Source: Physcia stellaris (lineage: Eukaryota > Ascomycota > Lecanoromycetes > Caliciales > Physciaceae). From it: 26,487 nt of DNA. The notes under the pieces were generated by a model. That model was not told the DNA's origin. It ran no database searches and saw nothing but the letters and a program-made list of their open reading frames with translations. Shown here piece by piece: positions 1 through 16,100 of the stretch (position 1 is its first letter; each line of letters opens with the position of its first letter). The stretch spans positions 1 through 26,487 of the forward strand of contig JABSSW010000107.1 in assembly GCA_018902385.1 (NCBI GenBank), given 5' to 3'. A program made the translations under genes and the position numbers.

Positions 1-1265
1 TTCACATTTCAGCTAATGCTCATTTCAATCATCGTTAAATTCAATAATTGTTTGAAAATGCGATTATTGAATGCATTATCAATCGTGATCGTCATTAACT
101 TTTTTGTTATTTCATAGAATTTTAGTATTGACAGCAGAAGATTTAACATTTTTTTTTCGTCATGACAAACATTTAACGAAACAAAGTCGATAAGTTTTTT
201 TTGATATTGAAAATTAATATTCATTCAATATATCATCACATTTAAATAAGCGATTTTTTGTTGATTGAATCAAGCATTTAACGAAATAAAAATTCGATCA
301 ACATTTTTCAATTCGTCTTTCAATTGATCACGAATTTCTTCATAGTTTTTCGTTACAAATTGATTTAATTTGATGCGATGTGATAGTTTCAAAATGAATC
401 GACTCATTTTCAAACATATTCGAAAATGCTCGTTCTCGATCGTTCGATAAGAAAAATCACAAGCAATAAAAATTTTGATTAAATGTTTTTCAAAGAGTTT
501 TTCGTCGAATGTTGCACGAGAATCGAGTTTGTTTTTTTTTTAATAAAAGTAAGTAAATGCATTATCAACATGCATTATTCAACAGATTTACATTAACATT
601 CTCGAAAGACTCGATTATTTTTTGAAAATCAAACGACATTGTTCGATTTTTTTTTTCAATTTTAAGACGATGTTTTGCGTTTTTCAAATGTTTGTTCATG
701 ACGTTGATGTCGTCATTTGCGTTTGACGAATGTTGTTGAACTTTTATAACATGTTTTACAAGCAATCATTGATGTTTCGTCAGACATTCTCGCTATTTGA
801 ACAAATTCTTGTCAGCATGAAGCAACTTTATCTTTCTTGTTCGATCAATGTGAATTATTGTACTTTGTTTGAGTTTTGTTCAAGATATTTTCATCAAAAT
901 TGATTTGTTTTCATTACTTTAAAAAAAGCATTCGAGCTTTTCTTTTTTCAGAATACATATTTTTTATTGTTATGAAGATTAAAATCAGAATGTTTTGTTC
1001 GAAATTCTTTCGTCAATTTGATTATTTGATTTTGACGATTATCAAAAATTGAAATTATCGATGATTGAAATTTGTGATGATTATCAAAGATTGAAATGAT
1101 TAATTGTTGAGAATTGTCAATTGACATATCGTCATCGTCGTTCATGATGAACGAACTTTCTAAATCTTGAATTGAAAACGAAGAAGAATTCGAAAACAAT
1201 TCGGAATTCGACATCTTATTTGACATTTGAATAAATGATAAAAATAATGCAAAGTGATAATGCAA
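1..1265 (-). pseudogene. hAT-family DNA transposase relic, N-terminal part (window-truncated)
   Basis: Degenerate transposase of a hAT (Activator-type) cut-and-paste transposon. Reading leftwards, an acidic, Ser-rich N-terminus (ATG near 1226 or 1265; residues 'FIMNDDDDMSID') is followed by a BED-like zinc finger: a CKTC pair at 749-760 and, in a shifted frame, 'MNKHLKNAKH' then 'FDFQKIIESF'. Next come 'YEEIRDQLKDELKNVDRI', the 'SLNA*' block that corresponds to hAT 'LDxW', and 'ITIDNAFNN' at the lower end, which matches the conserved hAT 'TTDNASNN' block. TGA codons at 270-272 and 225-227 sit where hAT proteins have Trp. The first catalytic Asp position reads Asn (SLNA), as expected from GAT to AAT. 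At least one frameshift separates the finger from the core. The C-terminal catalytic Glu and dimerisation domain lie outside the window. Family call is good; the start codon is uncertain. Confidence 0.78.
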
Positions 1266-1579
1266 TTTGAAGCACTAATTGTATATAGCACGAAATCAAG
1301 TTTCAAGATAATGCACAAAAATAATGCAAATATGATAATTGCAATTGTTCGATGAAAATCTTGAATCAAAAAGTAGTATAATTCAAAAAATAATAAATTG
1401 TCGAGAAGAATTGATAATAATTTCGAATACAAAGTAATATTATGATTATCACGTTTGATTTATATGAAATAATGCAAAAAAAAAATTCGAAAACTTTGAG
1501 AAAAAGCATTTATAATTAGTATCAGAAATATCGCGAAGTAATGTAATACGTCATGAAGTTAGAGTTTTTGACGAATCAA
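1266..1579. other. AT-rich leader upstream of the hAT relic, no gene seen
   Basis: AT-rich DNA on the 5' side of the minus-strand hAT gene. It holds short A/T tracts and no recognisable ORF, RNA gene or repeat. It retains AG and CT dinucleotides at a moderate level, so it is less mutated than the Gypsy DNA to its right. Confidence 0.4.
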
Positions 1580-1790
1580 ATCAAACTCGACATCGAAATT
1601 TGAAGTTTGATTCAAATTCAAATCAAGTCTTGACATTTTGACTTGAAATTTGACTTAAGCTCAAATCTTTTAGCGTGTCAAGAGTTTGAACTTGACTTAA
1701 ATTCAAGTTCAAGTCGAAATTTTCGACTTGCAAATCGGATCAAGTCGACGCACTCGAGCTTGAAACTTGATTCGACGATCAGTTTAGATT
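1580..1790. repeat. Dense short inverted/direct repeats of the CAAGTTTGA / TCAAACTTG type
   Basis: About 200 bp built from variants of TCAAGT, AACTTGA, GACTTGA and TTTGAACTTG in both orientations, for example around 1601-1635 and 1680-1725, ending in CTCGAGCTTGAAACTTGA near 1755. It lies 5' of the hAT relic. Subterminal arrays of short motifs that bind transposase are typical of hAT elements, so I infer this is the subterminal region of that transposon. A clean terminal inverted repeat and an 8-bp target duplication could not be identified. Confidence 0.55.
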
Positions 1791-2105
1791 TAATGATTTA
1801 GATTTGTTTTCTGATATTGATAAATTTGTTTGACGATTATTTTTGCAATTCGTTTTTCGATGAATTTTGTTTGATACATCGACTTTCGCGATAGACACTT
1901 TTTTGAAAATTCTGTACAACATTAGAGCGAACTATGCTTTCTATTTTTCTTTGTTGACTCGCTGAATAGAATCGAGTCTCGTTGTTCAATCTGACTTTGA
2001 AAAAAAAAATGACGTTTTAGATTTTCGCATTGAATTTAAAATCTTGTTTATTGAATAGATTGTCGTATTTCGAACAATCTAAAAAAATGAATGATTTCGA
2101 TATAA
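1791..2105. other. Unassigned AT-rich segment between hAT repeats and LTR-like repeat
   Basis: No ORF of note, RNA gene or clear repeat. AG and CT dinucleotides remain moderately common. It probably belongs to the element bounded on the right by the repeat at 2106-2300. Confidence 0.3.
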
Positions 2106-2300
2106 TGTGAAATGTCATGCATTGATATGATATTAATACATAATTACACGAAAATATCGAAATGAAAAACAAATACATGAAAATCTGACAAAACATATGT
2201 AAAAAATTTGATCATAAACGAAATTCGAATTTGTCATTCGATGTGATAAAATAAAAATATTAATTTTGTCAAATGTTGAATTCGATGCACGTTCGTCACA
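2106..2300. repeat. LTR-like repeat, copy 1 (TGTGA...TCACA)
   Basis: A 195-bp block starting TGTGAAATG and ending GTTCGTCACA. It recurs in the same orientation at 22485-22703, which has about 24 extra bases. The ends form TG...CA with the inverted termini TGTGA/TCACA, as in LTRs. To its right the G4 protease frame begins abruptly; to its left lies the less mutated hAT-containing DNA. I read it as the right-hand LTR of an element that extends left and interrupts G4. Flanking 5-mers (TATAA and TCATG) do not match, so a solo LTR with intact target duplication is not supported. Confidence 0.55.
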
Positions 2301-2664
2301 TCATGTTCGCAAACAAAAATTTCTGATTTTCGTTTGTTACACGCATATCGAACGTATTGTAATCAAAAATTAAACGATATTTTTGTCAGAAATTCTCGTT
2401 TAAAATCAAATCGTTATTCATATTAAAAATCAAACAATCAATGATTGTATAAAATTCATTTTTGTTTCAATTAAATTTAATGAAATCAACGACGTCAACA
2501 ATTTTATCGCTTTTTAATTGCATTTTGTCAAAAAAATATTGTAATTTTAATTTCAACAAATCGACAATGCGTTGAACAATGAAACAATAAAAAATATTCG
2601 AATTCGCAAATACAACGACGCGACGTTTTTTTTTTACGTTCACATCGAAACGTAATCACGTTTT
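2301..2664 (-). pseudogene. Ty3/Gypsy element G4: protease-region relic
   Basis: Minus-strand pol fragment of an old Gypsy element. The frame read leftwards from about 2625 contains 'RRVVVFANSNIFYCF', 'DKMQLKSDKIVDVVDFIKFN', and then 'MNNDLILNENF' followed by TGA at a likely Trp position ('ENF*QKYRLIFDYNTFDMRV'). This matches the end of Gypsy retropepsin domains, where 'DLILGxxW' precedes '...IDY'. The reading continues from the G4 gag at 12651 once G1 and one copy of its GTTTT duplication are removed. A one-base slip in a poly-A run near 2630 is needed to stay in frame. It is cut at 2300 by the LTR-like repeat, so reverse transcriptase and integrase are missing here. Confidence 0.62.
2660..2664. 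other. Target-site duplication of G1, left copy (GTTTT)
   Basis: GTTTT immediately left of the G1 5' LTR. The identical five bases lie immediately right of the 3' LTR at 12646-12650. Five-base duplications are normal for Ty3/Gypsy integrase. Confidence 0.8.
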
Positions 2665-2901
2665 TGTTACGAGCATGTTTGACAAATAAATTTGACAAAT
2701 AAATAAATGATATAATAAATGATTGAACAAATAAATTTAAATCGAATTATGTTTTAGTTTTTTGACGAAATTAACGTAATTTGAAATTTGACGTTCGCAC
2801 ATTGTTTGCAATTTCATTATTTTGTATATATTTGTTTTTGCAAATTTATTGTTTTCGTTTAATTAATCAATAATACGTTTATTCAAACACGATTCATGAT
2901 A
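2665..2901 (+). repeat. G1 5' LTR
   Basis: 237 bp, beginning TGTTACGAGCATG and ending ATTCATGATA. It pairs with an equally long 3' LTR at 12409-12645. I count nine differences between the two, all transitions: four in ApG/CpT context and five in CpA/TpG context. The last two bases are TA, not CA. That end is fixed by the GTTTT duplication. Confidence 0.92.
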
Positions 2902-3505
2902 TTACAATAAATTTTCAATTTTTATCGTTCGTCGTGATACGCGAACGTTCAAAAATAAAATTTCAAATCGATTAATTTTTTTTGACGAAACAAACGACGA
3001 AAAAATTTTGTTGATCAAACAAACGATCAAAAATTTTTTTTGACAAAACATCAAACGAAAATCGTAAAATAACAAAACGAATTTTCACGCAATCGACGAT
3101 AAAAAACGAAAATTGATTCGATTAATTTTTTTTCTTTTTATCATTTTCAATTTTTTATTTTCAATTATGATTCGAAATCATCACGAAACAATTTTTTTCG
3201 AATTTTTTATTTCGATGAAATAACGTTTCAAAACGTTACGTTTCAACGTGAATCGTATGTTACATGAAATTAACGACAATTTTTTCGATGAAAATTTCGT
3301 TAATCAATTCAAACGTCGTCGATTTATATCAACGATCGAATTCATAAAAATGAAAAATAACGAAATTATTTATTTTTTGAATATCGTCATCATCGATCAA
3401 TTGAAATGATGAATCAATCATAAAATTGTCGATTTTTTAAAAAAATTTGATCGATTACGCATCGATCGTGACAATTATTTAAACGTTTTGATTTAATATC
3501 AAAAT
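2902..3505 (+). other. G1 untranslated leader
   Basis: AT-rich leader between the 5' LTR and gag. A primer-binding site should start at 2902 (TTACAATAAATT), but mutation has blurred any tRNA match and I cannot assign one. The first 27 bases recur in reverse beside the LTR at 20618. No ORF of note. Confidence 0.6.
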
Positions 3506-4680
3506 TTGTACAATATTGTCAACGTCGATCGTGACGAATTGATTAATACGAATGTCAAATTAAATGAAATTCGTCGAAAATTGAATATTTTGAAAAACGA
3601 ATACGAAAAACAACGTGATTTATTTTTGATCAAACAAAAAAATTACATTTTTTTGAAAAAAAATCACGACATTTTGTTGATCAAAATTCGCGATCGTGCA
3701 CGAAATTTTGATGTCGACGATGAAAAAAACGACGATAAAATCAATATAATTAATTTTTTTCAAAAAAACAAACGACGTTTCAAAACACATTCAAATTTTT
3801 TTAAATTCATCAATAAAATGAAATTCATTTGACGTGTTTGAAAAACAAAAATACACGATAAAATGACGATTATCGTTGATTATTACGACACGAACATAAT
3901 CGCAATTATTATTGTAATTGATTGAATTGAAAATGATGTCGATAATCACATACAATCGATTCGTAATATTGATATGAATCATTTCAAAATTTGACATATG
4001 ATGTTGAAATTTTTGAATATTATTTACGAAAATTTTGATTTCAAACGCAATATGTATAATCAATTTCGAACATTGATTATGAATATTCAAAATTTTCAAT
4101 TTTTTATTTCATTTTTTTCGTTTTAACAATTCAATTGATTATAACGAAATCATCAAAATCGAAAAATTGATGAACAAAATTTTTTGAAATTTGAAAAAAA
4201 CGATAAATGTATATTTACGTGAATTTATTACGTTCGATAAAATTCGAATCATTTTGCAACAAATATACAATCGACAATCGAATTTTCGAAAAAAAAAATC
4301 GCGACACGTCAACAACGTTTTAAATTGTTTCAATTCAAATCAATTTTTGTCGTTTCGATTTCGATGTTTTTTACGAAATTTGTCATTTCGATTTTTTTCG
4401 TGAAATTTACAATTTATTTTTATTTCAACGTTGAAATCAAAATTCGTGATTCGATAATCGACAAATTGATCGTCACGAACAAATGTTTTACATATGATGA
4501 AATCAATCATGTTTGAAAAAAATGTTCGAACGTTCACAAACATCAAAAACGTTATTGACACAAAATGCAAATGTTTTATATGAATTTGATTGACGAATCG
4601 AACGATTTTGAATCGAACAATTAATAATTCACATCGAAAACGCGATTGATAAATATTTAAAAAAATTTTTTATTCACGAT
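3506..4680 (+). pseudogene. G1 gag relic (capsid and CCHC zinc knuckle)
   Basis: Gag encodes the capsid/nucleocapsid that packages element RNA. A first open block (3506-3832; opens with TTG, not ATG, so the true start is unknown) is charged and coiled-coil-like ('RRKLNILKNEYEKQRDLF'). Capsid-like sequence follows in broken frames; 4191-4403 has 'INVYLREFITFDKIRIILQQIY'. A zinc knuckle closes the gene at 4484-4525: Cys 4484, Tyr in place of the second Cys at 4493, His 4508, TGA at 4514, and Cys 4523, with CX2-X4-H-X4-C spacing preserved. Several frame changes occur. Assignment rests on the knuckle, the order of domains and position behind the LTR. Confidence 0.7.
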
Positions 4681-4686
4681 GATAAT

Positions 4687-5160
4687 ATGTTTGATTTTTT
4701 CATTAAACGATTTTTAATTATTAATTGTACGTTATCATTCAACGATAATAAACATAAATTAAAAATTTTAATAAACATTGATGCAATTGATTATGCATTC
4801 ATGAATAAAAAAATCGCGCAATTTGTATACAACATATTGAACATAAAATTTGTATTTTTATTGAAATCGAAATCATTGATTGAATTCGACGATCGTCAAA
4901 TTTTTTCAATAATTCACGTCATATATTTTAAATTAACGATAAAATTGCATTTCGAATTGATCGTTTTTTTGTTAATCATCGATTTGAATAATCATTCGAT
5001 AATTTTAAAAAAATCGTGAATGAACAAACATAAAATCATATTGAACATGATTTACGATAAATTGATTTTCAAATCGTTCAAATGCAATCATTATGACAAT
5101 ATATTCAATCAAATTGTTCAAATTCGACGTTTGAAAATTTTCAAATCAAATCGTCGATAA
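4687..5160 (+). pseudogene. G1 aspartic protease relic
   Basis: Retropepsin-like domain that would cleave the polyprotein. The open block 4687-5019 reads 'INCTLSFNDNKHKLKILI' and then 'NIDAIDYAF', aligned with the family pattern D-T/S-G-A-T-x-Y-A. The catalytic triad at 4774-4782 is now Asn-Ile-Asp: the Asp is lost (GAC to AAC) and Gly became Asp, both as expected from ApG/GpG mutation. Further on, 'LLIIDLNNHSIILKK' matches the flap/C-terminal segment. The frame continues past 5019 after a TGA at a probable Trp. Inactive. Confidence 0.75.
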
Positions 5161-5641
5161 AATGTATTTAATTGACATCGTGATATCGTATTATCGCAAA
5201 AAAACAATTCGAAACATATAACGATAATAAAATTTCGATATATCATTTTATTTCGATTTAAAATCAAATTTTTATTTTTTACAATTGAAAACGAATCAAA
5301 TATATTCGATTCGAAATGTTTCGAATGTTCAATTCATTCGAACGTCGATGACGATGACGAATCGTCAATTATCGAATCAAATAATTCAAAAATTGATATC
5401 ACGACGATTACGAAAACGACATTCGTCAAAATTTTTTTTTGAAAAAACAACGCAACAAACGTTGAAAAATCAAAAAACAACAATTCGAAATTTTTTCATT
5501 TTCGAAATTGAATTTAAACGATTCAATGAATATCGCGATGATTGATGCAATATTTTTTTATTTGTTCGTCGATTTCAAAAATCGAAAACAAAAAATGTAA
5601 TGTTTTTTTATTACGATCAATCAAATCGATATCGCGTTCAA
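5161..5641 (+). pseudogene. G1 pol linker between protease and reverse transcriptase
   Basis: Low-conservation spacer of the pol polyprotein, including an Arg/Lys/Gln-rich open block at 5285-5545 ('SRRLRKRHSSKFFFEKTTQQ'). This opens with a non-ATG codon and so is not an independent gene. The segment contains no CC, CT, AG or GG dinucleotide. The Copia-like element interrupts it after 5641, and pol resumes at 8885. Confidence 0.55.
5637..5641. other. Target-site duplication of the Copia-like element, left copy (TTCAA)
   Basis: TTCAA directly left of the LTR at 5642. It is repeated at 8880-8884 directly right of the other LTR. Removing the element and one TTCAA restores continuous G1 pol sequence. 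Confidence 0.88.
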
Positions 5642-5839
5642 TATTGAAAGAATCATGGGTGACTATCATTCTATTGCTCTGAATCTCGTTGTTCTAGGTA
5701 AGTTACATGCAGGTGGAAGCACAAGGAGTGTGCGGGTGCCAAGGCACTAGTCCCAACAAGGACGCACTAGTCCTTCTTTCGTCAGGTTATACTAACTGGA
5801 CCTGACTGCAGCACACCTGCGGAGGCTGTATTTCCAACA
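5642..5839 (-). repeat. LTR of the Copia-like element (3' LTR in element orientation)
   Basis: 198 bp; in element sense it starts TGTTGGAAATACAG and ends CTTTCAATA. Against the other LTR (8682-8879) I find one difference: T at 5666 versus C at 8706, a CpC-to-TpC change. Inside are a doubled GCACTAGTCC and the hairpin AAGGAC...GTCCTT. Confidence 0.93.
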
Positions 5840-5849
5840 CTCCCCCACA
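5840..5849 (-). promoter_or_regulatory. Polypurine tract of the Copia-like element
   Basis: Element-sense TGTGGGGGAG directly abuts the TGTTGG start of the 3' LTR. This is where a plus-strand primer for reverse transcription is expected. The core GGGGGAG recurs many times upstream (see the repeat entry 5840-7096). Confidence 0.82.
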
Positions 5850-6588
5850 GCAACCGCTTGTGCCTCCTGCTCTGTATCCTAACGAGCCCAGCCTGGAGCT
5901 TCCGTGCAAGCTCCCCCAGCGCGACGAGTCCTGGAGCTCCCCCAGCGATGTGGCTCCCCCAGCGATGCGTAGGTCCTGTAGGGCTAGACCATACACCGAT
6001 GCGAAGACTGCAGAAACGAACGAATCGAGGTCCGGTGACCTATTGGCTTCAGGTATGACGTAAGGCCGAATTGTAAGGCGTGCGACCGAGCATCTGAAGG
6101 ATTGCGACCGTGTTCTGGATCTCCATGAGGTGAAGCATCGATGTGGGATCTGGTACCTAGAATTGGGTAGAAGGTACACCATGGAGCAAGTACCAATTGC
6201 CTGAGTAGTGCGATATTGACGAGAGTGCAGGTCACACCATGATCTTGGTAGCATCATTGTGGATCTCAGGGTTCTCAGGTACTTCTTGCGGCATCAATGG
6301 ATCAGTTCCTATGTGATTTGGCTGTAGGAAGTCCATAAGGTATGCCGAATATGTGGAGCAAGCAGGAGATGGTCGAGAAAACGATAAGGAAGGTGTGTAT
6401 CGATGCAAAGAGTGCAGATTCGAGCTTTTCTGACCTGACTAAGACCTGCCAGAGAACCAGGTCGATTAGTATGCGAAAAGGTCAGATATCTCCAGTGCTT
6501 GATCGAGTTCTTGTCCTTCTTGATCGAGTTTCTGCTTCCTTGTTGACCGAGTTCATACTCTGCAAGGCCGAGGTGTAATAACTGCATA

Positions 6589-6664
6589 GTACGCTCCCCC
6601 GAAGCGGTACTATGTGACTCCTAGTCATGTCTGTACAGTACGCTCCCCCGAAGCGGTACTATCT
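6589..6664. repeat. Two copies of a 24-bp hairpin unit around CTCCCCCG
   Basis: AGTACGCTCCCCCGAAGCGG plus TACT occurs at about 6589-6612 and again at about 6638-6661, 49 bp apart. Each can fold with AGTAC pairing to GTACT and GC to GC, leaving the C-tract in the loop. Confidence 0.7.
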
Positions 6665-6907
6665 GGTTCGTTACTCCTCTTCTAACAGTTCGTACAGTAC
6701 GTCAAGTACGCTCCTCCGAGACTGTACTGCCAGGACTGTACTCTACTCACTCTCTCCCCCTCGTATTTATCGGGCGACTGAAGCCTCAAAGGGTAGTAGG
6801 GAATAGAGGCGATTATCAGTCGTGTTAGATCAAGACGAAGCCGCAACAAAGGTAAGTCCCTACCATATTCGTCAAACAATAAAACAAAGCATACAACAAC
6901 TTGTAAA

Positions 6908-7022
6908 GCTCCCCCAGGCCGAAAATTGGGCGGGAGGGGCGGGACATCGAATCCATTAAAACAACAACAACTTTTATGCTCCCCCCAGGCCGATCAACGG
7001 TTAATAGGGAGGGCGGGCGGGC
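6908..7022 (+). repeat. Two G-quadruplex-capable tracts in a ~70-bp duplicated unit
   Basis: GGGCGGGAGGGGCGGG at 6928-6943 and GGGAGGGCGGGCGGG at 7007-7021. Each has four G-runs separated by single bases. Each sits in a duplicated unit that starts GCTCCCCC(C)AGGCCG (6908, 6978) and is followed by CAA-rich sequence. The G strand is antisense to the element transcript. Confidence 0.72.
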
Positions 7023-7083
7023 AAAACAACAAACAAACAACATGCTCTAACTCCCCCAAAGCAGTGACTCCCCCGAAGAGGGG

Positions 7084-8505
7084 TCAATACTCCCCCGAAG
7101 CAGGGTGAAGAGGAGCGAAACGCCAGTAACGCATCCCCATGGGTATCCCATTGCTCTCAACTCTTGAGGCATTTCGCATGGCCCAACCAGTAGGCCAATA
7201 GGTGGCGGAACGCCCTTGGCAATGCCTGCAAACAGGAGGCGAGCGAGAGATCCTTGGGAAAGAGGGGCGCACCGAAGCAAATCGAGGAGTAGAGCGAAAC
7301 AAGGAAGGTGACGTGCGGGCCGACTGTTTGGCCGGGTCATGCACTGCTGGAAATGCTTCGAATTTGGCCGATTTGGAAGCAGGTAAGGCCACCGCATTAA
7401 AGTATGACGTAATGCGCGTTTGTATGGGGCCAGATTTGCAATTGCTTCTGGGGCTGCATTTGCCAGAGCTGCGCGGGGACAACGGCTTGTTCTGGCTTGG
7501 CTGCAGGCCAAATGGACTCGGCTTCCCAGCGAACATATGGAACAAGTCGTCCATGGTGAGATAAGGCTTCTGAATGCCTTGGTGTTTCGAGGTCGGGGTT
7601 CGAGGCGGAGTAAGCGGAGCAAGCGGGCAACAGACTGCGGGCTTCTCCAAGATTTTGCTCACCGATTTGGGTGTCGCAATCGGGAGACGAGAGGGTTTCG
7701 GCGCAACGACTGGTCGTGAGGCGATTTCTGCCCAAGATATCGGTTTCTTTGGTGTTGCAACCGACGAGGTAGGTGATATGCTCTCTGAACGCTCGCGTAC
7801 AATTTCTGGTGCGGGCATCGAGAGAGGTAAGAGTTTCGGTGACGTTGGAGGTGAGGAGGTTACCGATCGAGGTGACGAAGCAGGAGGAGTAGGAGGTGAA
7901 ACAACAGACTGCTCAGCAAGCTTCGGCTTCTTTGCATGACGAGTACGGATATGCTCGTGGAGCTTGGTGTTGCTGTCAAATTTTGTCTTGCAACGCCTGC
8001 AGGTATATCCTTCTGCCCGTTTCTTGGCCAGGCGGGCTTCCTCCTTTTGCTTTGTCAACTGCTTCATTTCCTCCTTGAGCTTGTTCTTGACCTCCAACTC
8101 ATGCTTTCGTAAATGGTAACTCTCTTGTGCCCTCTTCGCTTGAGTGAACCAACTGCATCGCAAAGCCTTAGCATCCCCAGTCAGGTGCATGCTATACAGC
8201 GTTTTCAGATCTTGCGTCATTGGGTGGCCATCAGGTACGTGGTCGCAAAGGGCAGACGAAAAAGGTAAAAGGTCAGGTGCGGAGGTGGCCGCAGGAGTAG
8301 GAGTAGTCATTCTGACTGAGTGTAGGATTCGCGAGAAGGTTCGATATCGTAAGGTATTCGTAAGGGGTTCGGTAGGTAGGCGAATTCGTAAGGGACTCGC
8401 GAAGGGTATGTAGGTAGGTCGAATTCGCGAGGGATTCGAAAGGTGAGTAGGTGTTACCGATGTAACTGAGGGTGTACCAAGGTACTGGATATTGCTCGAT
8501 TGCAA
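7084..8505 (-). CDS. C2H2 zinc-finger protein with PIP-box-like motif, carried by the Copia-like element
   Basis: Intact 473-codon ORF. Residues 1-65 are encoded by a short tandem repeat, so Met66 (8310, 'MTTPTP') is a plausible alternative start. Residues 84-125 are globular-looking ('DHVPDGHPMTQDLKTLY'). Residues 130-165 are a charged, probably coiled-coil helix ('LEVKNKLKEEMKQL'). Residues 169-190 are one canonical C2H2 finger: Cys169, Cys172, Phe176, Leu182, His185, His190. After it comes a long Pro/Ser-rich, presumably disordered region, then 'PYLTMDDLFHMFAGK' (314-328). QTRITSYF at 362-369 fits the PCNA-binding pattern Q-x-x-I-x-x-F/Y-F/Y. The tail contains 'VCRHCQ' (425-430). It occupies the gag position behind the primer site. 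It may be a divergent gag-like protein or a captured host gene. Function is unknown; nucleic-acid binding is inferred. Confidence 0.75.
   Translation of the reverse strand: MQSSNIQYLGTPSVTSVTPTHLSNPSRIRPTYIPFASPLRIRLPTEPLTNTLRYRTFSRILHSVRMTTPTPAATSAPDLLPFSSALCDHVPDGHPMTQDLKTLYSMHLTGDAKALRCSWFTQAKRAQESYHLRKHELEVKNKLKEEMKQLTKQKEEARLAKKRAEGYTCRRCKTKFDSNTKLHEHIRTRHAKKPKLAEQSVVSPPTPPASSPRSVTSSPPTSPKLLPLSMPAPEIVRERSESISPTSSVATPKKPISWAEIASRPVVAPKPSRLPIATPKSVSKILEKPAVCCPLAPLTPPRTPTSKHQGIQKPYLTMDDLFHMFAGKPSPFGLQPSQNKPLSPRSSGKCSPRSNCKSGPIQTRITSYFNAVALPASKSAKFEAFPAVHDPAKQSARTSPSLFRSTPRFASVRPSFPRISRSPPVCRHCQGRSATYWPTGWAMRNASRVESNGIPMGMRYWRFAPLHPASGEY
8311..8460. repeat. Degenerate ~45-bp tandem repeat at the ORF 5' end
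   Basis: Units containing GTAGGTAGG-CGAATTCG-(T/C)(A/G)AGGGA-(C/T)TCG repeat at about 8365-8410 and 8408-8450, with shorter TTCG(C/T)(G/A)AAGG pieces upstream. They overlap codons 1-65 of the C2H2 ORF, which makes that N-terminus doubtful. Confidence 0.6.
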
Positions 8506-8660
8506 TTAGGTCGATTTCGGGTCTGACAAGACTGGATACTCCTCAATGGAGTTGGTTACTGCTGCGAGTACTGCAAACCTTGCTGTACTGCCTGGCGGCT
8601 AGTTACTACTGCTCGGCGTCCTCTGACATGCTGTAGCTGGTACTAGATGTAGCGAAAGCT

Positions 8661-8681
8661 GCTAACCCGGTTCTCATAACC
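8661..8681 (-). promoter_or_regulatory. Primer-binding site of the Copia-like element
   Basis: Element-sense GGTTATGAGAACCGGG starts right after the LTR. GGTTATGAG is complementary to CTCATAACC, the anticodon-loop segment of eukaryotic initiator tRNA-Met. Half-tRNA-iMet priming is known from Copia elements. The match after the first nine or ten bases is uncertain. Confidence 0.7.
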
Positions 8682-8879
8682 TATTGAAAGAATCATGGGT
8701 GACTACCATTCTATTGCTCTGAATCTCGTTGTTCTAGGTAAGTTACATGCAGGTGGAAGCACAAGGAGTGTGCGGGTGCCAAGGCACTAGTCCCAACAAG
8801 GACGCACTAGTCCTTCTTTCGTCAGGTTATACTAACTGGACCTGACTGCAGCACACCTGCGGAGGCTGTATTTCCAACA
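8682..8879 (-). repeat. LTR of the Copia-like element (5' LTR in element orientation)
   Basis: 198 bp, identical to 5642-5839 except at 8706. Element-sense AGTATAACC (about 8826-8834) could supply a TATA-like element, but no transcription start can be placed. Confidence 0.93.
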
Positions 8880-8884: not shown

Positions 8885-9756
8885 AACATTGCGAACGAAT
8901 TTTGAATCGTTGAAAATTGTTGTTATAATCAAAAAAATTTTGAAACACGAACAAATCAAATCGATTTTTGAACGTATAATGAAAAAAATAACGAAATATT
9001 TCAAATATTTGTCAAAAATATTCGATTTTCAAAAAACAATTGAATTGTTATCGCATCGATTTTACGATCATAAAATCGAATTTTTAAACGATAACAATAC
9101 ATTGTTTCGAAACAAAATATATTCTTTGTTCAAATTCAAATTTCAAAAATTCAAAAAATATTTGAAAAATAATTTTTAAAAAAATTTCATCGTATTCAAT
9201 CAAATTGCATACGTTTTGTTCGTTTTATTTGTAATTAAATCAAATGATCAATTACGTTTGTGTGTGAATTATCGACGATTTAATCACATCACAAAACGTA
9301 ATCGATATTTTATTTTTTTGATCGAAAAAATTTTAATTAAAATGCAAAATTGCAAATATTTGATCAAATTGAATATTATATCGATTTTCAACAAATTTCG
9401 AATGAATGAAAAAAATGAAAAATTCATCACGTTCGTCATTTTCATGAAATCGTACAAATATCGAATATTATTTTTCGAATTGATCAACGAATTCGCGAAT
9501 TGACAACATTACATGAACGATTTGTTATTCAATTTTTTAAACGATTTTTGTCAAATTTATTTAAATGATATTTTCATTTACAACAAATTCAAAAAAAAAC
9601 ACATCGTTCACGTTCGTAAAATGTTGAAAAAATTCAAAAAAATCGAATTACAAATAAATATTGAAAAATGCGAATTTTTCAAAAAAAAAAAACGTTTTTG
9701 AACGTTATATTATCGATAAATGATTTTCGCATGAATTCAAAAAAAAAATAAAAATC
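8885..9756 (+). pseudogene. G1 reverse transcriptase relic
   Basis: Polymerase domain that would copy element RNA. In order: 'ELLSHRFYDHKIEF' (LPxHRxxDHxI), 'YLKNNF', 'VLFVIKSNDQLRLCVNYRRFN' (motif 1, expected CVDYR; Asp is now Asn), 'NRYFIFLIEKI' (NRYPLPLI; Pro lost), 'KYLIKLNIISIFNKFRM' (first catalytic Asp is now Asn), 'FELINEFAN', TGA at 9501-9503, 'QHYMNDLL' and 'CQIYLNDIFIYN' (catalytic YLDD is now YLND). 'IEKCEFFKKK' and, after a one-base slip near 9700, 'FLNVILSINDFRMN' follow. Both palm-domain Asp changes are inactivating. Stops are TAA at 9177-9179 and TGA at 9501. Very secure identification. Confidence 0.93.
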
Positions 9757-10617
9757 ATTGTCAATTGAAAACGTTTTACGAATTTGAAAAAAATACAAAT
9801 TTTCGTGAATTTCGTCAATTTTTACAGACGATTCATTCGTGATTTTTCGAAAAAAATTCGAATTTTCATTCGAATGATCAAAAAATTTGTGAATTTCGAA
9901 TGAATTGAAAAAATCGAAAAAGTTTTCAATTTTTTCAAAAAAACGATGACGAAAATTTTTATATTACGACATTACGATCGAATCAAACAAATCATTTTAA
10001 AAATCGATTTTTTTAATTACGTCAATGTCAAAATATTATTTCAATACGACGACGAAAAAATGTTGCATTTCGTTGTTTTTTACAATCGTAACATGATTTC
10101 AATCGAATGCAATTACGAAATTTATAACAAAAAATTGTTAATCATTATTCGTTGTTTAGAACATTGACGTTTTAAATTCGAAAATATCGAAAAATCGATC
10201 AAAATTTTCATCGATCACAAAAAATTGAAAATTTTCATAACGTCGAAAAAATTCATTTTTCGTCAAATTCGTTGAGCAGAAATTTTCTCGAAATTTAACA
10301 TTGTCATTCAATTTCAATTTGAAATTCAAAACGTTAAAACAAATATTTTAATTCGTATGTTTGATTTTCAATTCAAAAACGAAATTAATGAACGATATCA
10401 ATATCGAAAACAAATATTGTTCATTTTAAAACGATTCGAAATTCACGCGATAAAATTTGACGAATTTATTTACGAACGAATTTTAATTGTTAATAAAATT
10501 GACGATAATTGCACGACGTATCGTGAAATTATCGAACAAAATTTCATTTCAATGAACGAAATCGATTTACGAAATTGCAATGAAAAAAACGATATTTTAT
10601 ATCGAAATGATCGATTA
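9757..10617 (+). pseudogene. G1 RNase H and connection domain relic
   Basis: Frame 1 runs unbroken in register from 9757 to 11688 apart from point-mutation stops. The segment starts 'VN*KRFTNLKKIQIFVNF' and 'YRRFIRDFSKKI' (classic Gypsy thumb/connection). RNase H follows: 'LKIDFFNYVNVKILFQYDD' (T/DASDYA pattern, first Asp kept), 'ECNYEIYNKKLLIIIRCLEH' and 'FIDHKKLKIF' (TDHKNL). TGA codons at 9766, 9901, 10165 and 10273 stand at Trp positions. It degrades the RNA strand during reverse transcription; this copy is dead. Confidence 0.9.
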
Positions 10618-11688
10618 TGAATGTCTGTCGATATTTTTTTATTCGTTGATTTTTTCAAAAAAATTCACGAATTTTCGATTTCGAAACATTCAAATTTTAA
10701 TTGTATAAAAAATTTTATACGTCGCGATTATTATTGATTCAATATGCGCAAATTCGTTCGTCGATACGTACGTAATTGTTATAAATGTCAACGTACAAAA
10801 ATTTTCAAAAATCGAAAAAATAATTTATTCATTTTTTTGATCATTTTTTTGCAACGTTGAATCGACATATTTATAAATTTTATCATCGAATTGTTCGACG
10901 TTCACGATTATAACGTCATTTGCACGATAATTGACAAATTTAACAAAAAACGTCATTACGTGTTTTGCATCGTCGACGACGAAAATACAAACGCGAAAAT
11001 CACAATCAAAATATTTATCAATTACGTATTTCGTACGTATGAATTATTTTTTTTTATAACGTTAAATCGAAAATTTCAATTTATATCGTTCGTTTGACAA
11101 ACATTTTGCAAAATTCTCGACATCAAATGTAAATTTTTTATCGTTTTTTATTCAAAAATCGATGAACAAATCGAAAAAATCAATCAAAATATCGAGAAAT
11201 AATTACGACAATATTGCAATTACATGCAAAACGATTGAAACATTTGATTGTTTATAATCGAATTTGCAAACAACAACGCGATATTTGCAACAACAAAATT
11301 GTCATCATTTTTTATCAATAAGAATTTTCATTTTCGTATAAATTTTTCATTAAATTTTATTTCGTATGTTACAACGAAAAAACGACTTTTAATTATCAAA
11401 ACAAAAAATATTATCGATATAATGCAAAATATTTTCAATTACGTACGAAATCATGCAAAAATAATTCAAAAACGTATAATAATTCAAATCAACAAACATC
11501 GAAAAATCGTGAAATATTTCGAAAAAAATTTCGTTTTTTTGAATCGACGAAACATCAAAACGATTAAATCATTTAACAAATTTGATGACAAAAAATTAAA
11601 ATCGTACAAAATGTTAAAACGTATGAGCAATTTTTATCGATTCGAATTATCAAAAATCATGCGAATTTACGATGTGTTTCATTGTTGA
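10618..11688 (+). pseudogene. G1 integrase relic (HHCC, core, C-terminal)
   Basis: Integrase would insert the cDNA. The N-terminal zinc-binding domain keeps His in 'IHEFSISKH' and the Cys pair in 'RYVRNCYKCQRTK' (about 10762-10797). The catalytic core includes 'FDVHDYNVICTIIDKFNKKRHYV' and 'FINYVFRTYELFFFITLNRK', where the SDRG box has become LNRK (Ser to Leu, Asp to Asn, Gly to Lys), and 'KIDEQIEKINQ', in which Glu survives. The C-terminal part has 'IEFANNNAIFATT' and 'KSYKMLKRMSNFYRFELSK'. Stops: TGA at 10618, 10735, 10858, 11095, 11236 and 11245 (Trp positions), and TAA at 11200 at a Gln position. Secure. Confidence 0.92.
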
Positions 11689-12050
11689 TTTTTTCGCAAA
11701 AATTTTCGTGATTTTTTCGAAAATCAAATTAACGAATTTTTCGATTTCGTTATAGTCAACGAGAATTTCGAATGAAAAATGAACGATATTTTGAAATTTC
11801 GATATTATTACAATCGTTTTCAATATCGTGTCAATTGATCGAATTGATTTTATAATCGAACGTGATATTATGTCGACAACGAAAAATTCGATAATGTTCG
11901 CGACGTAATGAACGATTTTCATCGTAATAATTTCACGACAACAAATTCAAAATCGTTCAAAACGTTGATTTCAATATTTCAAATCGTTGTCAACGAAACA
12001 AATTTTTCAACGAATCGTCGTCGTTTTCGAAAAAAAATCGTCATGTTAAC
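11689..12050 (+). pseudogene. G1 chromodomain / C-terminal tail relic
   Basis: Beyond a TGA at 11686 the pol frame continues as 'FFRKNFRDFFENQINE', then about 11758-11850 with 'MNDILKFRYYYNRFQYRVN' and TGA, the pattern of a Gypsy chromodomain (w.VE.IL..R...g.l.Y.VkW.G). Chromodomains direct integration towards heterochromatin. Mutated beyond function. A homologous stretch lies antisense at 21480-21800. Confidence 0.75.
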
Positions 12051-12408
12051 ATTAATCGAAATTATTTTCGATTAACATTTGACGCAACGAATTCGATTTT
12101 CATTCATTTGTTTTTGATTTCACGATTTTTATTCAACAATTCAAATTTTATTATTTTTTCGATGTTATTTACAATCAAAATTTACATCGCATGAAAAATT
12201 GAATCGTGTCAAAAACATTTTCAAAAATTGTCGTCAAATTTTATCGAACGTTGAAATGACATTAAAATATTAAAAAATGAAAAATGATGATCGTGAAATT
12301 TTTGAATTTTGCAATTATACAATTTGATCAACAAAATTTTCAACAAGATTTTCAAATTTCGCAACAACAACGAATCGTCGAAACGACGTTCGCGAAAAAA
12401 AAAAATAA
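12051..12408 (+). other. G1 3' untranslated region with polypurine tract
   Basis: AT-rich, no ORF of note in element sense. The last 17 bases (12392-12408, GCG followed by an A-run and TAA) abut the 3' LTR and are the expected polypurine tract, with its G residues probably turned to A. 12178-12400 recurs in reverse at about 21110-21340, and its inner part also at 23447-23530. Confidence 0.65.
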
Positions 12409-12645
12409 TGTTACGAACATGTTTGACAAATAAATTTGACAAATAAATAAATAATATAATAAATGATTGAACAAATAAATTTAAATCGAATTATGTTTTA
12501 ATTTTTTGACGAAATTAACGTGATTTGAAATTTGACGTTCGTACATTGTTTGCAATTTCATCATTTTGTACATATTTGTTTTTGCAAACTTATTGTTTTC
12601 GTTTAATTAATCAATAATACGTTTATTCAAGCACGATTCATGATA
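12409..12645 (+). repeat. G1 3' LTR
   Basis: 237 bp, TGTTACGAAC to ATTCATGATA, matching 2665-2901 with nine transitions and no indels. The GTTTT duplication follows at 12646-12650. Confidence 0.92.
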
Positions 12646-12650
12646 GTTTT
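12646..12650. other. Target-site duplication of G1, right copy (GTTTT)
   Basis: Identical to 2660-2664. G4 sequence resumes here on the minus strand. Confidence 0.8.
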
Positions 12651-14074
12651 CGACATACGTTTATTAACATTCAAATTGATTAAAAACATCAATTCGTTTT
12701 TCGATTGTATTTTTGAAATGTACGAATTCTTTTCACGAGTTTCAAAATTTCAAAATTTCGACGTTTTTATATTAAACATCTTCGAAATCGTGATTGTGAT
12801 AAACGAAATTTGTTCATTTTCAATTATCAAATCGATTTTTTTTTGTCGATTTTGAACGATTTATGCAATTAAATGCAATTCATGCGACGACGATTTCAAA
12901 CGTTTTTCGAATTTTTGTTTTTGTCACGATTTTTATCGTTTCGACGAAATCGTCAATTTGACAAATCATTTTCAAACACGATTTGAAATTCGAACAAATT
13001 GAAAACAAAATGATTCGTTTGATCACAATTGTAACATTTTTTCGCGAAAATATTTATAACGTTTAAATTTTTTGTTGTTTATTGTTTTGAACGACAAAAA
13101 TTTATGTTGATTGACTCGTCGTTGAAATTGTTCGAAAAACAAAAACATATTTTTGCGTTGACATTTTCGTGTTTCGAAACATTCGTCATCATGTTGTAAT
13201 TTTCATATTCGAATACATTTGATTTTGATTGAAAATGTAATTTCGAATATCGACAAAATTCGTCACGATATTTTTTTGATCGCGAATTCAATAACGTGTT
13301 CGCGAATGTTTTCGTATATCGACGTGAATTTGTTATTGTAATCGACGATTTTGTTGAAATGCGTCAAATTGAATTGATTTCGTTGTATATTTTGAAAAAA
13401 TTTTGTTGTGAATCGTGTTCGTTTCAACGAATGAGAAAATATTTTTGAATTCGAATCATTTGTCGTCAAATTTTTGCAATTGTTGAACATTTTAAAAAAA
13501 ATAAATCATTCGACAATTTTGTTTTCGAAATATTGTTCGATGACGATGAAAACGTTGATTTTGTTGACTAAATGTGAATTGAACACATGAAATTTCTCGT
13601 GTTTGAATAGAAAATCTTTGATTTCAACATGATTACGTTCACGTTTTTGAAAAATTGAAAAACGACGATCGATAATTTGATCATCGAAAATGATTTGCGT
13701 TTCAATTTGCGCGTTAAACAAAATAAAATCAAACAAATGATCGTCGTCGTTAAAATCAACGATTTACAATCAATCTTCGCAAAAGATTGATTGTAATTCA
13801 TAAACAAATTGATTCGTAATGTACGTTCACGATCGCGACGAAATTGATCATTTAATTGAACGACGACATCATTTTCGACGACGATATTATTTTCGACAAA
13901 ATCGACGTTTTTTTCGTTCGAATTTTCGACGAATTCGTCAACGATTTCATCGAATTGATTGTCGAATTCTGTTGCAATGTTCGCAAAATTTGAAAAATCG
14001 AAAACAATCGTACGTTGTAAAAAATCATTTAAACGATCACGACGACGTTTTAAATTATCATTTTGAATAAACAT
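12651..14074 (-). pseudogene. Ty3/Gypsy element G4: gag relic
   Basis: Minus-strand gag beginning at ATG 14074 ('MFIQNDNLKRRRDRLNDF'). The N-terminus is acidic ('DEIVDEFVENSNEKNVDFVEN'). The frame shifts near 13780 and continues as 'FNAQIETQIIFDDQIIDRRF' and 'VFNSHLVNKINVFIVIEQYF', then 'KIVDYNNKFTSIYENIREHV'. A zinc knuckle reads KCYNCDQTNH: Cys at 13034-13036 and 13025-13027, His at 13010-13012; the fourth Cys position reads Leu. TGA codons interrupt at several plausible Trp positions. Beyond it, 'FRRCLI' and 'INLNVNKRMSKT' lead to the G1 junction, and the protease follows at 2664. The LARD-like element splits its leader at 14120. Confidence 0.68.
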
Positions 14075-14120
14075 GATGATTGATAAGTAAAAAACTTTAG
14101 AAATTTTAAATTCTCAAATG
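14075..14120 (-). other. G4 leader, gag-proximal piece
   Basis: Short untranslated stretch upstream of the gag ATG, ending in AAATG (14116-14120), the left target duplication of the LARD-like element. The leader continues at 20310. Confidence 0.55.
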
Positions 14121-14411
14121 TGTAAGAAACATTGCATCAGAAATGTATAGCAAAAACAATAATATGATTAAATTAATAATTGTTGAACTAATTGTTTTGC
14201 AGATTTCGCAATATATATTCGTTTTGTCTGTTCAATTGTACGAGTTTTTGAGTTTTTGCGCATGAATATTTAGTCGATATGCGATATGAATGTCGAATGA
14301 TTAATATAATAAAACTGATCGTTTCGTGAATTGATGTTTCGAATTTGCTTGATTTGAATTTTTGACAATCGAAATTCGATTCGCATTGTTTTGAACTTTG
14401 AATTTTTTACA
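14121..14411 (+). repeat. LARD-like element, left LTR
   Basis: 291 bp from TGTAAGAAACATTGC to ATTTTTTACA. Compared with 20019-20309 I count 23 differences and no indel: 22 transitions and one transversion. Of the transitions, 12 are C/T before T, 7 are A/G after A, and 3 are A/G after T. Confidence 0.92.
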
Positions 14412-15120
14412 CGTTTTTTTTTCTAAACATCGAAATTTTTTGAAATGATCAATATTTTTCGTATGCTTTGCAACAAAAATTCATAAATTGATGTATTCGT
14501 ATGTTGTATTCATATGTCTATTCATGAATTGTATTCATGAATTGTATTCATGAATTTGAAAAATCGTTATAATCGCGACTTTCGCATTTTGATATAATTT
14601 GAAAAATCATTGTGATCGTGATTTTCGCATCGAATATTTTATCATTCATTTCGATTTTTATCAGTTTGCGTTAAAAATCTGAAAATCATTTTCGTGAATG
14701 ATTTAAAAAAAACATGATTTGATAATTCAACTGTTTGCTGTTTTCAGTATCGAAAATTTAATTTCGTACAATTCACGACTCTCGATATAATGATTGACAA
14801 TTAACTAAATAACAATGAAATTTGAATTCGAGTCAATTTATATCTGTCTATTTTTTATCTTTTTATTTCATATATCGAAATCGATGAATTTATCGAGAAA
14901 AAAAATGTTTAAACGCGAGAGACGTCGAATAGACGCGATCGCATTCGATATATCAAATTTCGAAAATTTGTTCGATTTTTTGCATTTCATTTTACATTCA
15001 CAATATTCAACGCTCAATTAAATCGAACAACAATTTTTGAAAATGTTTTTAACACGATTCAATTCCTCTATGCGTCGTAAATCTCAGACAATAAACAACA
15101 CAAAATCGTGACATGAAATT
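14412..15120. other. LARD-like interior, left part, with one unassigned reading frame
   Basis: An ATG-initiated frame at 14815-15021 (+) encodes 68 residues including 'RKKMFKRERRRIDAIAFDIS' and continues after TAA at 15019 for some residues. I do not recognise it; a gag remnant is possible. The rest is AT-rich without features, except for repeats of GAATTGTATTCAT near 14524-14552. Confidence 0.3.
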
Positions 15121-15124
15121 TGAA

Positions 15125-15690
15125 ACGATTATTTTCGAATCAATTGTTTCATCAAAAGAATTATATTTGCAAAACGTTGAACGCGTCATGATATTGAATG
15201 TTAAATTGTTCGAATCAATTGTATTATCAAAAACATTGAATTTGTCATGTTATTGATTTTCAAATACGTTTTCGTTATATGATTTGATTTGAATTTGTTA
15301 CACAGTTTATTCGTGATTATAAAACGTCTATCGTGTCGCGATACTGACATGACTATTCGAATCAATTGATTTGTCAAATGAATTATATTTGCGAAAAACG
15401 TTCGACATCGAACGCGTCATGATATTAAATTGTTTTCGAATCGATTGTATCATTACAAAAATTATATTGTCGTGTTGTTGATTTTCAAATATTTTCTCAT
15501 TATACGATTTGTTCGAGACTCGATCGTTTATTTATGATTATAGAACGTCAATCGCGTCGCGATAAACATGATTATTCGAATCAATTATATCGTCAGAAAA
15601 ATTGAATCATGTTATTGATTTTCATATACGTTTTCATTGTTTGATTTGATTTGAATCTGTTGCACGATTTGCTCGTGACTTGATTATATT
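15125..15690. repeat. Degenerate tandem repeat, units anchored on TTCGAATCAATTG
   Basis: TTCGAATC(A/G)ATT(G/A) recurs near 15137, 15210, 15356, 15434 and 15576. GTT(A/G)TTGATTTTCAAATA recurs near 15249, 15474 and 15609, each followed by a GATTTG...CGTGA...TTATAA type segment. It is consistent with about two and a half copies of a 220-bp unit that has been shortened and mutated. Confidence 0.65.
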
Positions 15691-16100
15691 TGTAATTATT
15701 CTTTGTCAATGTCGATGTCTTATAAATTGATGCATAAATTCTAAATGTTTGTTTCTAACGAAACTTTTTTTTTTTTAATTTCAATTTTTTTAGAAAGCAA
15801 AACGATTTCTGTATGCAATTATGTGAATCTTTGAATTTTTATTTTTATTCAGCAATTTCGCGAATTTTCAATCATTTATCTTGTAATTTGAGAAATTTCG
15901 ACAAAGTTTCGAACGATGATATTCTCGATGAATATGCATGTTTTGCAAAAAAACTTTGTCATGACAATCAATTGTTCTATTCATTGTGTTTTACATGATG
16001 AGAAAAAATCATGAAACTGTGCTGTGTGCGAAATTTTCTATGATCGTCGTTTTTTGAATGTATGATTCATGTTTTACTTTTCGATAATATGTTATAAAAT
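15691..16100. other. LARD-like interior, unassigned
   Basis: An ATG frame at 15813-15998 (+) encodes 61 residues with several Cys (ending 'AKKLCHDNQLFYSLCFT') and stops at TGA. Not recognised. No partner domain nearby. Confidence 0.25.

What the first reader, a model, noticed from the sequence alone, without database searches (positions are those of the whole stretch)
3136..5641. Mutation signature aimed at C before a pyrimidine: CC, CT, AG and GG are absent
Reading 3136-5641 line by line I found no CC, CT, AG or GG dinucleotide in 2.5 kb, although CA, TG, CG, AC, GT, TC and GA are common. The same near-absence holds in 8885-12645 and 21111-26487. Low GC alone cannot remove four dinucleotides and keep their partners. 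CpG is spared, so this is not methyl-CpG decay. CpA is spared, so it is not classical Neurospora-type RIP. The simplest reading is a RIP-like C-to-T process with a CpY (CpT/CpC) target. I know of no well-described fungal RIP whose main target is CpY; this deserves a check against the literature.
Basis: partly seen in the sequence, partly recalled or inferred. Interest (0 to 1): 0.92.

Follow-up and report, generated by a model that had tools for sequence, protein, structure and literature searches.

The report
Fungal repeat mutation hitting C-before-pyrimidine
In this fungus, repeated DNA has been attacked by a C-to-T mutating process that hits C before C or T and largely spares C before A or G, roughly the reverse of the textbook fungal process, so the usual detection indices miss it.

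Summary
Window 3136-5641 holds 0 CC, CT, AG and GG (2000 shuffles: mean 303, minimum 256), while CpA and CpG are enriched. The window is contig C107 of a 44-Mb fungal genome. In a 200-kb sample, the 34 bins under 30% GC show the same signature and the 356 bins of at least 40% GC do not. An intact LTR element at 5642-8879 has AT-rich copies elsewhere; in 23 alignments C became T at CpC 849/1061, CpT 570/1227, CpA 72/1161 and CpG 54/851, the last two equal to background. CpC goes first, then CpT. Both strands are hit, unevenly in places. At one boundary examined, multicopy DNA is mutated and adjoining single-copy DNA is not; several copies show leakage-like gradients. Three C5-methyltransferase genes, one DIM-2-like and two RID-like, are present. 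Best reading: repeat-induced point mutation with preference CpC > CpT >> CpA, CpG. CpA indices score 0/51 windows here. My searches found no CpC-first RIP in ascomycetes; the key 2011 survey was not readable.

The parts
3136..5641 (.). CpY-saturated stretch: no CC, CT, AG or GG; interior of an LTR-flanked repeat
   Evidence: one search counts; shuffles
2665..2901 (+). 237-bp terminal repeat (left) of the mutated LTR-type element that spans 2665-12645
   Evidence: direct repeat D2; 228 of 237 identical to 12409-12645, all 9 differences transitions
12409..12645 (+). 237-bp terminal repeat (right) of the same mutated element
   Evidence: D2
8885..12645 (+). right part of the mutated element; high-copy family
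   Evidence: 0 CC, 0 GG, 6 CT, 12 AG; query 9000-12645: near full-length copies at 83-94% identity; 39 of 875 candidates scored; 7 copies compared
5642..8879 (+). intact (unmutated) 3.2-kb LTR-type element nested inside the saturated element; served as the unmutated reference for copy alignments
   Evidence: end repeats 5642-5839 and 8682-8879 and 5-bp target-site duplication TTCAA at 5637-5641 and 8880-8884 read from the sequence; D3; 199 of 201 identical; 89 matches including itself, the others at 68-97% identity, 39 of 217 candidates scored
7084..8505 (-). 473-aa open frame of the intact element, with a C2H2-like segment by eye; used to count stop codons in mutated copies
   Evidence: no Pfam match at E 0.01; stops in copies
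12646..21110 (.). partly mutated degenerate repeat: CC 1, GG 0, CT o/e 0.41, AG 0.20
   Evidence: (sub-stretch 14000-18500: 179 matches, listed ones other than itself at 64-93% identity, 40 of 611 candidates scored)
20587..26487 (-). second, inverted copy of the mutated element, near-saturated (21111-26487: 0 CC, 0 GG, 15 CT, 11 AG), running to the window end
   Evidence: inverted repeats
1..3135 (.). partly mutated AT-rich DNA: CC 0, GG 2, CT 61, AG 79

Best explanation
The window is repeat-rich DNA of a filamentous ascomycete (inferred) hit by repeat-induced point mutation whose target is C followed by a pyrimidine. Repeated copies are recognised, C is converted to T on both strands, CpC fastest, CpT several-fold slower, CpA and CpG barely, until CC/CT/GG/AG vanish. 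The effect leaks a few hundred to about 1200 bases into adjoining DNA. SHOWN: the context preference, hits on both strands, restriction to repeats at the one boundary examined and by composition in the sample, leakage-like gradients, presence of RID-like and DIM-2-like genes. INFERRED: that a RID- or DIM-2-type cytosine methyltransferase is the mutator and reads the base 3' of the target C as a pyrimidine; that it acts in the sexual cycle.
For:: 59 alignments, 23 dropped as double hits; in the 23 AT-rich ones (9014 aligned bases) CpC 849/1061, CpT 570/1227, CpA 72/1161, CpG 54/851; the 13 GC-rich ones give 603/2513, 328/2582, 144/2544, 113/2022. Transversions per base are 0.040 in AT-rich and 0.048 in GC-rich copies, so mutated copies are not older; dose series over 175 bins, e.g. 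CpC 0.458, CpT 0.123, CpA 0.069, CpG 0.041 at low dose and 0.96, 0.94, 0.13, 0.04 at the top; little effect of the 5' base; both strands mutated; L025 CpY mutation falls from about 90% to 0 over 1.2 kb; in L011 the mutated 1-4000 is multicopy, 4401-10000 is single copy apart from two short fragments, and the signature stops at about 4.0-4.4 kb; 34 bins under 30% GC carry the signature, 10 bins of 30-40% are intermediate, 356 bins at 40% or more are normal; three C5-methyltransferase genes, one DIM-2-like, two RID-like. MAT alpha-box gene.
Against: Timing, dependence on RID/DIM-2 and a direct link to duplication cannot be tested here. Many copies of the LTR element remain intact or half intact although they are 73-87% identical to one another, which RIP might be expected to hit if its homology limit is low (65% over 100 bp was used for Neurospora; passage of PMC7296669); they may lie past a threshold, or mutation may come mainly from neighbouring repeats. 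Strands are not always hit evenly: L028 1-975 has 27/119 on one strand and 10/124 on the other, L033 61/296 and 38/349. CpC followed by C is hit less (212/348) than CpC followed by A, G or T. CpA shows more C/T polymorphism than CpG in the saturated family (193/664 vs 74/611 columns), so CpA is not fully excluded. The test of repeats against unique DNA rests on one boundary plus the composition sample.
Confidence: 0.84

Rival explanations
1. Slow decay of methylated cytosine: a DIM-2-type enzyme methylates CpY in heterochromatin at all life stages and spontaneous deamination turns mC to T, with no sexual-cycle burst.
For: A DIM-2-like gene is present; the signature follows the AT-rich compartment; gradients at element edges also fit spreading heterochromatin.
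Against: AT-rich and GC-rich copies have similar transversion divergence (0.040 vs 0.048 per base) although CpC is 80% converted in one and 24% in the other, so age alone does not drive it; a much higher rate confined to heterochromatin is not excluded. The end repeats 2665-2901/12409-12645 differ at 9 of 237 sites while the element between them is near-saturated. CpG is not elevated.
Confidence: 0.11
2. A cytidine deaminase of APOBEC/AID kind edits single-stranded DNA of retroelements.
For: C-to-T hypermutation of retroelements; some local strand unevenness.
Against: From general knowledge such deaminases read the 5' base; here the 5' base has little effect (at CpC: A .77, C .73, G .71, T .74; at CpT.44.40.41.34) and the 3' base decides. 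Both strands are hit, and changes run as gradients into element copies.
Confidence: 0.02
3. Ultraviolet pyrimidine-dimer mutation or plain AT-biased composition.
For: CC and CT are dipyrimidines; GC is low.
Against: TpC before A or G is abundant (TCA 92, TCG 84 against TCC 0, TCT 0 in 3136-5641); CpG o/e 4.27; bins of at least 40% GC in the same genome are normal; composition shuffles never fall below 256.
Confidence: 0.01
4. Classical CpA-directed RIP, or an assembly or bisulfite artefact.
For: None found beyond the RID-like and DIM-2-like genes.
Against: CpA changes equal background (6.2% vs 5.7% in GC-rich copies); TpA/ApT 0.42 and substrate index 1.44 in 3136-5641, the reverse of classical RIP. 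Mutated and normal DNA alternate inside single stretches (L011, L012); bisulfite would spare CpG, not CpA (general knowledge). Reads were not available to test the assembly.
Confidence: 0.02

Closest known systems
Classical RIP of Neurospora crassa (RID, with DIM-2)
   Same: C-to-T on both strands of repeats, genes spared, leakage into flanks, RID- and DIM-2-like genes present
   Different: Published order for N. crassa is CpA > CpT > CpG > CpC (passage of PMC5496416); here CpC > CpT >> CpA, CpG, the least favoured site there being the most favoured here
CpT-rich RIP reported in Ascochyta rabiei, Colletotrichum truncatum and Anisogramma anomala
   Same: CpT-to-TpT is a prominent change; A. anomala also has two rid and one dim-2 (passages of PMC4835772, PMC6180176, PMC10998396)
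   Different: C. truncatum families (14 analysed by the authors) and A. anomala repeats have TpA/ApT of 0.93 or more; CpA is a co-target in A. anomala and the main one in some C. truncatum families; A. rabiei reports relatively lower CpA change. The passages seen name no CpC target
RIP-like hypermutation of Basidiomycota (CpG or TpCpG; Rhizoctonia solani AG8)
   Same: C-to-T with a non-CpA target. The AG8 table of heterozygous SNPs lists CpC changes as the densest (one per 214 bp, against CpG 370, CpA 422, CpT 491; passage of PMC4014442), the nearest thing to a CpC excess that I saw in print
   Different: AG8 authors describe a CpG bias, CpT is the rarest there, genes and repeats are hit alike, and the figures are not per available site; here CpG is spared (o/e 4.27), CpT is second and bins of normal GC are spared
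Trichoderma reesei RIP
   Same: Species-specific order of dinucleotide preference
   Different: CpA~CpG, then CpT > CpC (passage of PMC5496416); CpC is again last
Stagonospora nodorum and Monilinia RIP
   Same: CpC loss is noted beside the main signal: CpC and GpG depleted in S. nodorum repeats (PMC2621366); CpC-to-TpT double changes in Monilinia (PMC8959702); passages only
   Different: CpA-to-TpA is called dominant or classical in both

Membership tests
Repeat-induced point mutation (RIP, broad sense) | Excess of C-to-T / G-to-A transitions in copies of repeats | tested here: met
   1578 C>T or G>A against 123 T>C or A>G and 359 transversions in 23 AT-rich alignments
Repeat-induced point mutation (RIP, broad sense) | Repeated DNA hit, single-copy DNA spared | tested here: met
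   (one boundary, in L011; 4001-4400 not searched); composition of 20 stretches
Repeat-induced point mutation (RIP, broad sense) | Both strands mutated | tested here: met
   19 alignments of 370 columns or more, summed by hand: 922/2864 and 1019/3643 CpY sites; uneven in L028 1-975 (27/119, 10/124) and L033 (61/296, 38/349)
Repeat-induced point mutation (RIP, broad sense) | Leakage into adjoining sequence | tested here: met
   decline along L025 and L029, mutation confined to one end in L032, rising unevenly in L031; flanks beyond the fetched stretches were not read, so the source of the spread is inferred
Repeat-induced point mutation (RIP, broad sense) | RID and/or DIM-2 methyltransferase encoded | tested here: met
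   homology only. PDB 9bap is named only DNA (cytosine-5-)-methyltransferase in the output; the names DIM-2 and RID are assigned from recall; function not tested
Repeat-induced point mutation (RIP, broad sense) | Acts premeiotically in the sexual cycle | not testable with these tools
   only a MAT alpha-box gene was seen
Repeat-induced point mutation (RIP, broad sense) | Length and identity threshold for recognition | tested here: inconclusive
   intact parts of copies mostly 73-85% identical pairwise (87.5% over 351 columns once); 198-bp end repeats at 99% unmutated; consistent with a threshold but no proof
Classical CpA RIP (Neurospora type) | CpA the main target; TpA/ApT raised, (CpA+TpG)/(ApC+GpT) lowered | tested here: not met
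   CpA 6.2%; TpA/ApT 0.42, substrate index 1.44, 0 of 51 window bins positive at RIPper thresholds
Basidiomycete CpG / TpCpG RIP-like mutation | CpG or TpCpG the main target | tested here: not met
   CpG 54/851; TCG 30/344 (ACG 6/196, CCG 5/188, GCG 15/214)

The most novel reading that the evidence does not exclude
A RID- or DIM-2-type mutator in this ascomycete lineage has a re-specified +1 base pocket (pyrimidine, C over T, instead of A), perhaps through divergence of one of its two RID-like paralogues. RIP then saturates repeats while creating stop codons almost only from Trp TGG, and is invisible to CpA-based indices, so RIP may be under-counted in fungi scored RIP-free.
Probability: 0.5. 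Interest if true: 0.78.

Novelty: new variant of a known kind. Interest (0 to 1): 0.68.

Why it matters
RIP is commonly detected with indices built on CpA. Here the thresholds of one such tool of 51 window bins positive, while a CpC index of 51. Genomes scored as RIP-free may need re-scoring. The change also alters the damage: 9 of 10 new in-frame stops seen were TGG>TGA and none of 39 CAA/CAG/CGA codons compared became a stop, whereas CpA changes make stops from CAA and CAG (genetic code). A natural mutator that prefers CpC to CpA would let the base-reading part of RID/DIM-2 be mapped.

Tried and rejected
Rejected: AT bias alone, methyl-CpG decay, CpA RIP, UV and APOBEC-like editing (reasons under rivals).

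Led nowhere: naming the organism. The 18S search (RF01960) never gave an answer, so the species is unknown. Pfam found no domain in the element's 473-aa frame at E 0.01. Structure prediction and fold search were not used: I judged that they would not give a base preference, and the RID-like genes are interrupted by introns. Rfam found nothing in the window at gathering thresholds, and ARAGORN no tRNA.

Literature: 10 searches, all in the held open-access library. Of 15 papers opened I saw matched passages only, no whole text or section: PMC4014442, PMC2621366, PMC5555474, PMC5496416, PMC7979813, PMC7882544, PMC5602860, PMC9073689, PMC8959702, PMC10998396, PMC7296669, PMC6714961, PMC4835772, PMC6180176, PMC4522978; in PMC5602860 and PMC9073689 'CPC' was a strain prefix. 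Searches (RIP with 'CpC to TpC'; with CpY) returned 0 papers. Clutterbuck 2011, a survey of RIP context, was not looked up or read (seen only in a reference list); the Gladyshev 2017 review is not held; DeRIP (PMC3017866) could not be opened (paper cap). A lichen metagenome paper that mentions RIP (PMC12542154, listed) was not opened. Against novelty: in PMC7882544 CpT-to-TpT is called dominant in alignments of RIP-capable controls, so CpT as such is not new, and AG8 shows dense CpC SNPs.

Data handling: one search counted LTR segments twice; one search repeats it without double hits. Low-identity copies were chosen on purpose, so the share of mutated copies in the family is not estimated. The GC-rich set contains partly mutated copies. 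Bins are sorted by CpY mutation itself, so only the CpC/CpT order and the flat CpA/CpG are informative. The sample took fixed positions on 20 contigs, not random ones. Index scans covered the window and 6 of the 20 sampled stretches.
Full report
Observation. Shuffling the same bases 2000 times gives 303 of the four on average and never fewer than 256. The other two intervals named are near-empty (0 CC, 0 GG; 6 and 15 CT; 12 and 11 AG). The rest of the AT-rich window is hit less: CC and GG are almost gone (CC 0 and GG 2 in 1-3135, CC 1 and GG 0 in 12646-21110), but CT and AG survive in part. The same order, CC before CT, appears in the copy alignments below.

Setting. The window is contig C107, bases 1-26487, of a 43,974,083-base genome in 147 contigs; I infer a filamentous ascomycete from its DIM-2-like, RID-like and MAT alpha-box genes. 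A mutated LTR-type element runs 2665-12645, with 237-bp end repeats identical at 228 of 237 sites. Inside it sits an unmutated 3.2-kb LTR-type element, 5642-8879, with near-identical ends (199 of 201) and a 5-bp target duplication TTCAA read from the sequence. A second, inverted copy of the mutated element starts near 20587. Part of the mutated element (9000-12645) has many near full-length copies at 83-94% identity; 39 of 875 candidates were scored.

Genome sample. Twenty 10-kb stretches at fixed positions were read, 400 bins of 500 bases. In 34 bins below 30% GC, CC is 0.02 and GG 0.01 of expectation, CT 0.15, AG 0.14, CpG 3.79, CpA 1.28. Ten bins of 30-40% GC are intermediate (CC 0.40, CT 0.79). 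In the 356 bins at or above 40% GC the four lie between 0.91 and 1.09. So the signature belongs to one compartment, not to the whole genome.

Direct test. The unmutated element served as reference for ten loci holding copies (L012, L025-L033), nine of them chosen for low identity. Of 59 alignments, 23 were dropped as repeat hits on the same bases. In the 23 AT-rich ones C became T at CpC 849/1061, CpT 570/1227, CpA 72/1161, CpG 54/851 (chi-square 1724). In the 13 GC-rich ones the figures are 603/2513, 328/2582, 144/2544 and 113/2022; that set includes partly mutated copies, which accounts for its raised CpC. Transversions per base are similar (0.040 and 0.048), so the mutated copies are not older. 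Sorting 175 bins of 200 columns by CpY mutation, CpC runs 0.07, 0.20, 0.46, 0.65, 0.77, 0.85, 0.94, 0.96; CpT 0.04, 0.10, 0.12, 0.22, 0.39, 0.61, 0.73, 0.94; CpA and CpG stay between 0.04 and 0.13. The base 5' of the C makes little difference. The second base 3' does in one case: CpC followed by C is hit less (212/348) than CpC followed by A, G or T (0.77-0.81).

Saturated family. Seven copies of 9000-12645 (window plus L034-L039) have 0-1 CC and no GG, with 3-53 CT and 6-90 AG. Columns polymorphic for C/T number 1 of 320 before C, 191 of 1097 before T, 193 of 664 before A and 74 of 611 before G. CpC is therefore finished in these copies, CpT still varies, and CpA seems to change slowly: from the mildest copy (L039) to the window copy CA+TG falls from 462 to 402 while TA rises from 176 to 237. 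This speaks against a strict 'CpA is spared' wording.

Repeats and edges. In L011 bases 1-4000 are mutated and match many other places (62 matches including itself, 40 of 80 candidates scored). Bases 4401-10000 are normal and match only themselves apart from fragments of about 200 and 75 bases. The signature fades between 4.0 and 4.4 kb. Inside LTR-element copies the mutated share can fall off from one end: in L025, pooled over strands, 90, 81, 72, 55, 36, 17 and 0% per 200 bases; L029 declines likewise, L032 is mutated at one end only and L031 rises unevenly. This resembles the leakage described for RIP (passages of PMC4014442 and PMC7296669). Over the 19 alignments of 370 columns or more, CpY changes number 922/2864 on one strand and 1019/3643 on the other (my sums), but some lightly mutated parts are uneven (L028 1-975: 27/119 and 10/124; L033: 61/296 and 38/349). 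Many copies remain intact at 73-87% pairwise identity, which a low homology limit would not predict.

Machinery. A six-frame Pfam search for C5 methyltransferases gave four matches in three genes. L002 matches PDB 9bap, named DNA (cytosine-5-)-methyltransferase in the output, at 2e-181, and aligns through the catalytic region; that this is DIM-2 is my recall, so I call L002 DIM-2-like. L001 and L003 share an N-terminal region and 40% identity over 174 residues of the catalytic part and are RID-like; the RID label rests on Pfam DNA_methylase and recalled motifs. Two rid genes plus one dim-2 are also reported for Anisogramma anomala, whose RIP is CpA and CpT. Which gene makes CpY mutations here is unknown.

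Mechanism proposed. A C5-methyltransferase-type mutator is favoured over a deaminase because the base 3' of the target decides, as expected for CpN-reading methyltransferases (general knowledge). TpC before a purine is abundant in 3136-5641 (TCA 92, TCG 84), which excludes UV. Steps shown: context, strands, repeat link at one boundary, gradients. Steps inferred: enzyme, sexual timing, deamination chemistry.

Consequences. The stringent RIPper thresholds (passages of PMC6714961) of 51 one-kilobase windows positive here, while (CC+GG)/(TC+GA) below 0.1 holds in 43 of 51; in L011, L012 and L013 the counts are 0 of 19 each against 7, 11 and 17, and in L005, L006 and L014 none by either. In mutated copies of the 473-aa frame, seven loci were tried and four gave codons (850 compared): 10 new stops, 9 of them TGG>TGA and one GCA>TAG; 9 of 11 TGG and 0 of 39 CAA, CAG or CGA codons became stops. 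The A. rabiei authors note that CpT changes never make nonsense codons (passage).

Novelty. In the passages seen, N. crassa and T. reesei put CpC last; several ascomycetes show CpA, with CpT beside it or dominant in some alignments; S. nodorum repeats also lose CpC and GpG, and Monilinia shows CpC-to-TpT double changes, both with CpA leading; basidiomycetes show CpG or TpCpG, though the R. solani AG8 table has CpC as the densest SNP class. Ten searches found no report of CpC-first RIP in an ascomycete, but the library is open-access only and the 2011 survey was not read. I therefore call it a new variant of a known kind.

Noticed in passing
window 12646-21110: Strand asymmetry in the partly mutated repeat: CT 176 but AG 79, although C (1104) and G (1189) are similar. 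Some lightly mutated LTR-element copies (L028 1-975, L033) are uneven too, the heavily mutated ones much less so.
   Followed up: no
L001 (C6:790057-794028) and L003 (C5:497807-501292): Two diverged RID-like methyltransferase genes (40% identical over 174 residues, apparently sharing an intron position); L001 reads EET where L003 reads EQT.
   Followed up: partly
window 5642-8879: 3.2-kb LTR-type element with a reverse-strand 473-aa frame bearing a C2H2-like segment by eye and no Pfam match; several intact but diverged copies (mostly 73-85% identical pairwise).
   Followed up: partly
L013 (C9:500001-510000): 500-base bins as low as 11 and 15% GC, lower than the CpY-saturated repeats of the window (about 22-25%), suggesting another AT-enriching history or simple-sequence DNA.
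   Followed up: no
G000:C4:738502-738876: MAT alpha-box match (1.1e-25) in an open frame of 345 aa, so the strain carries a MAT1-1-type gene.
   Followed up: no
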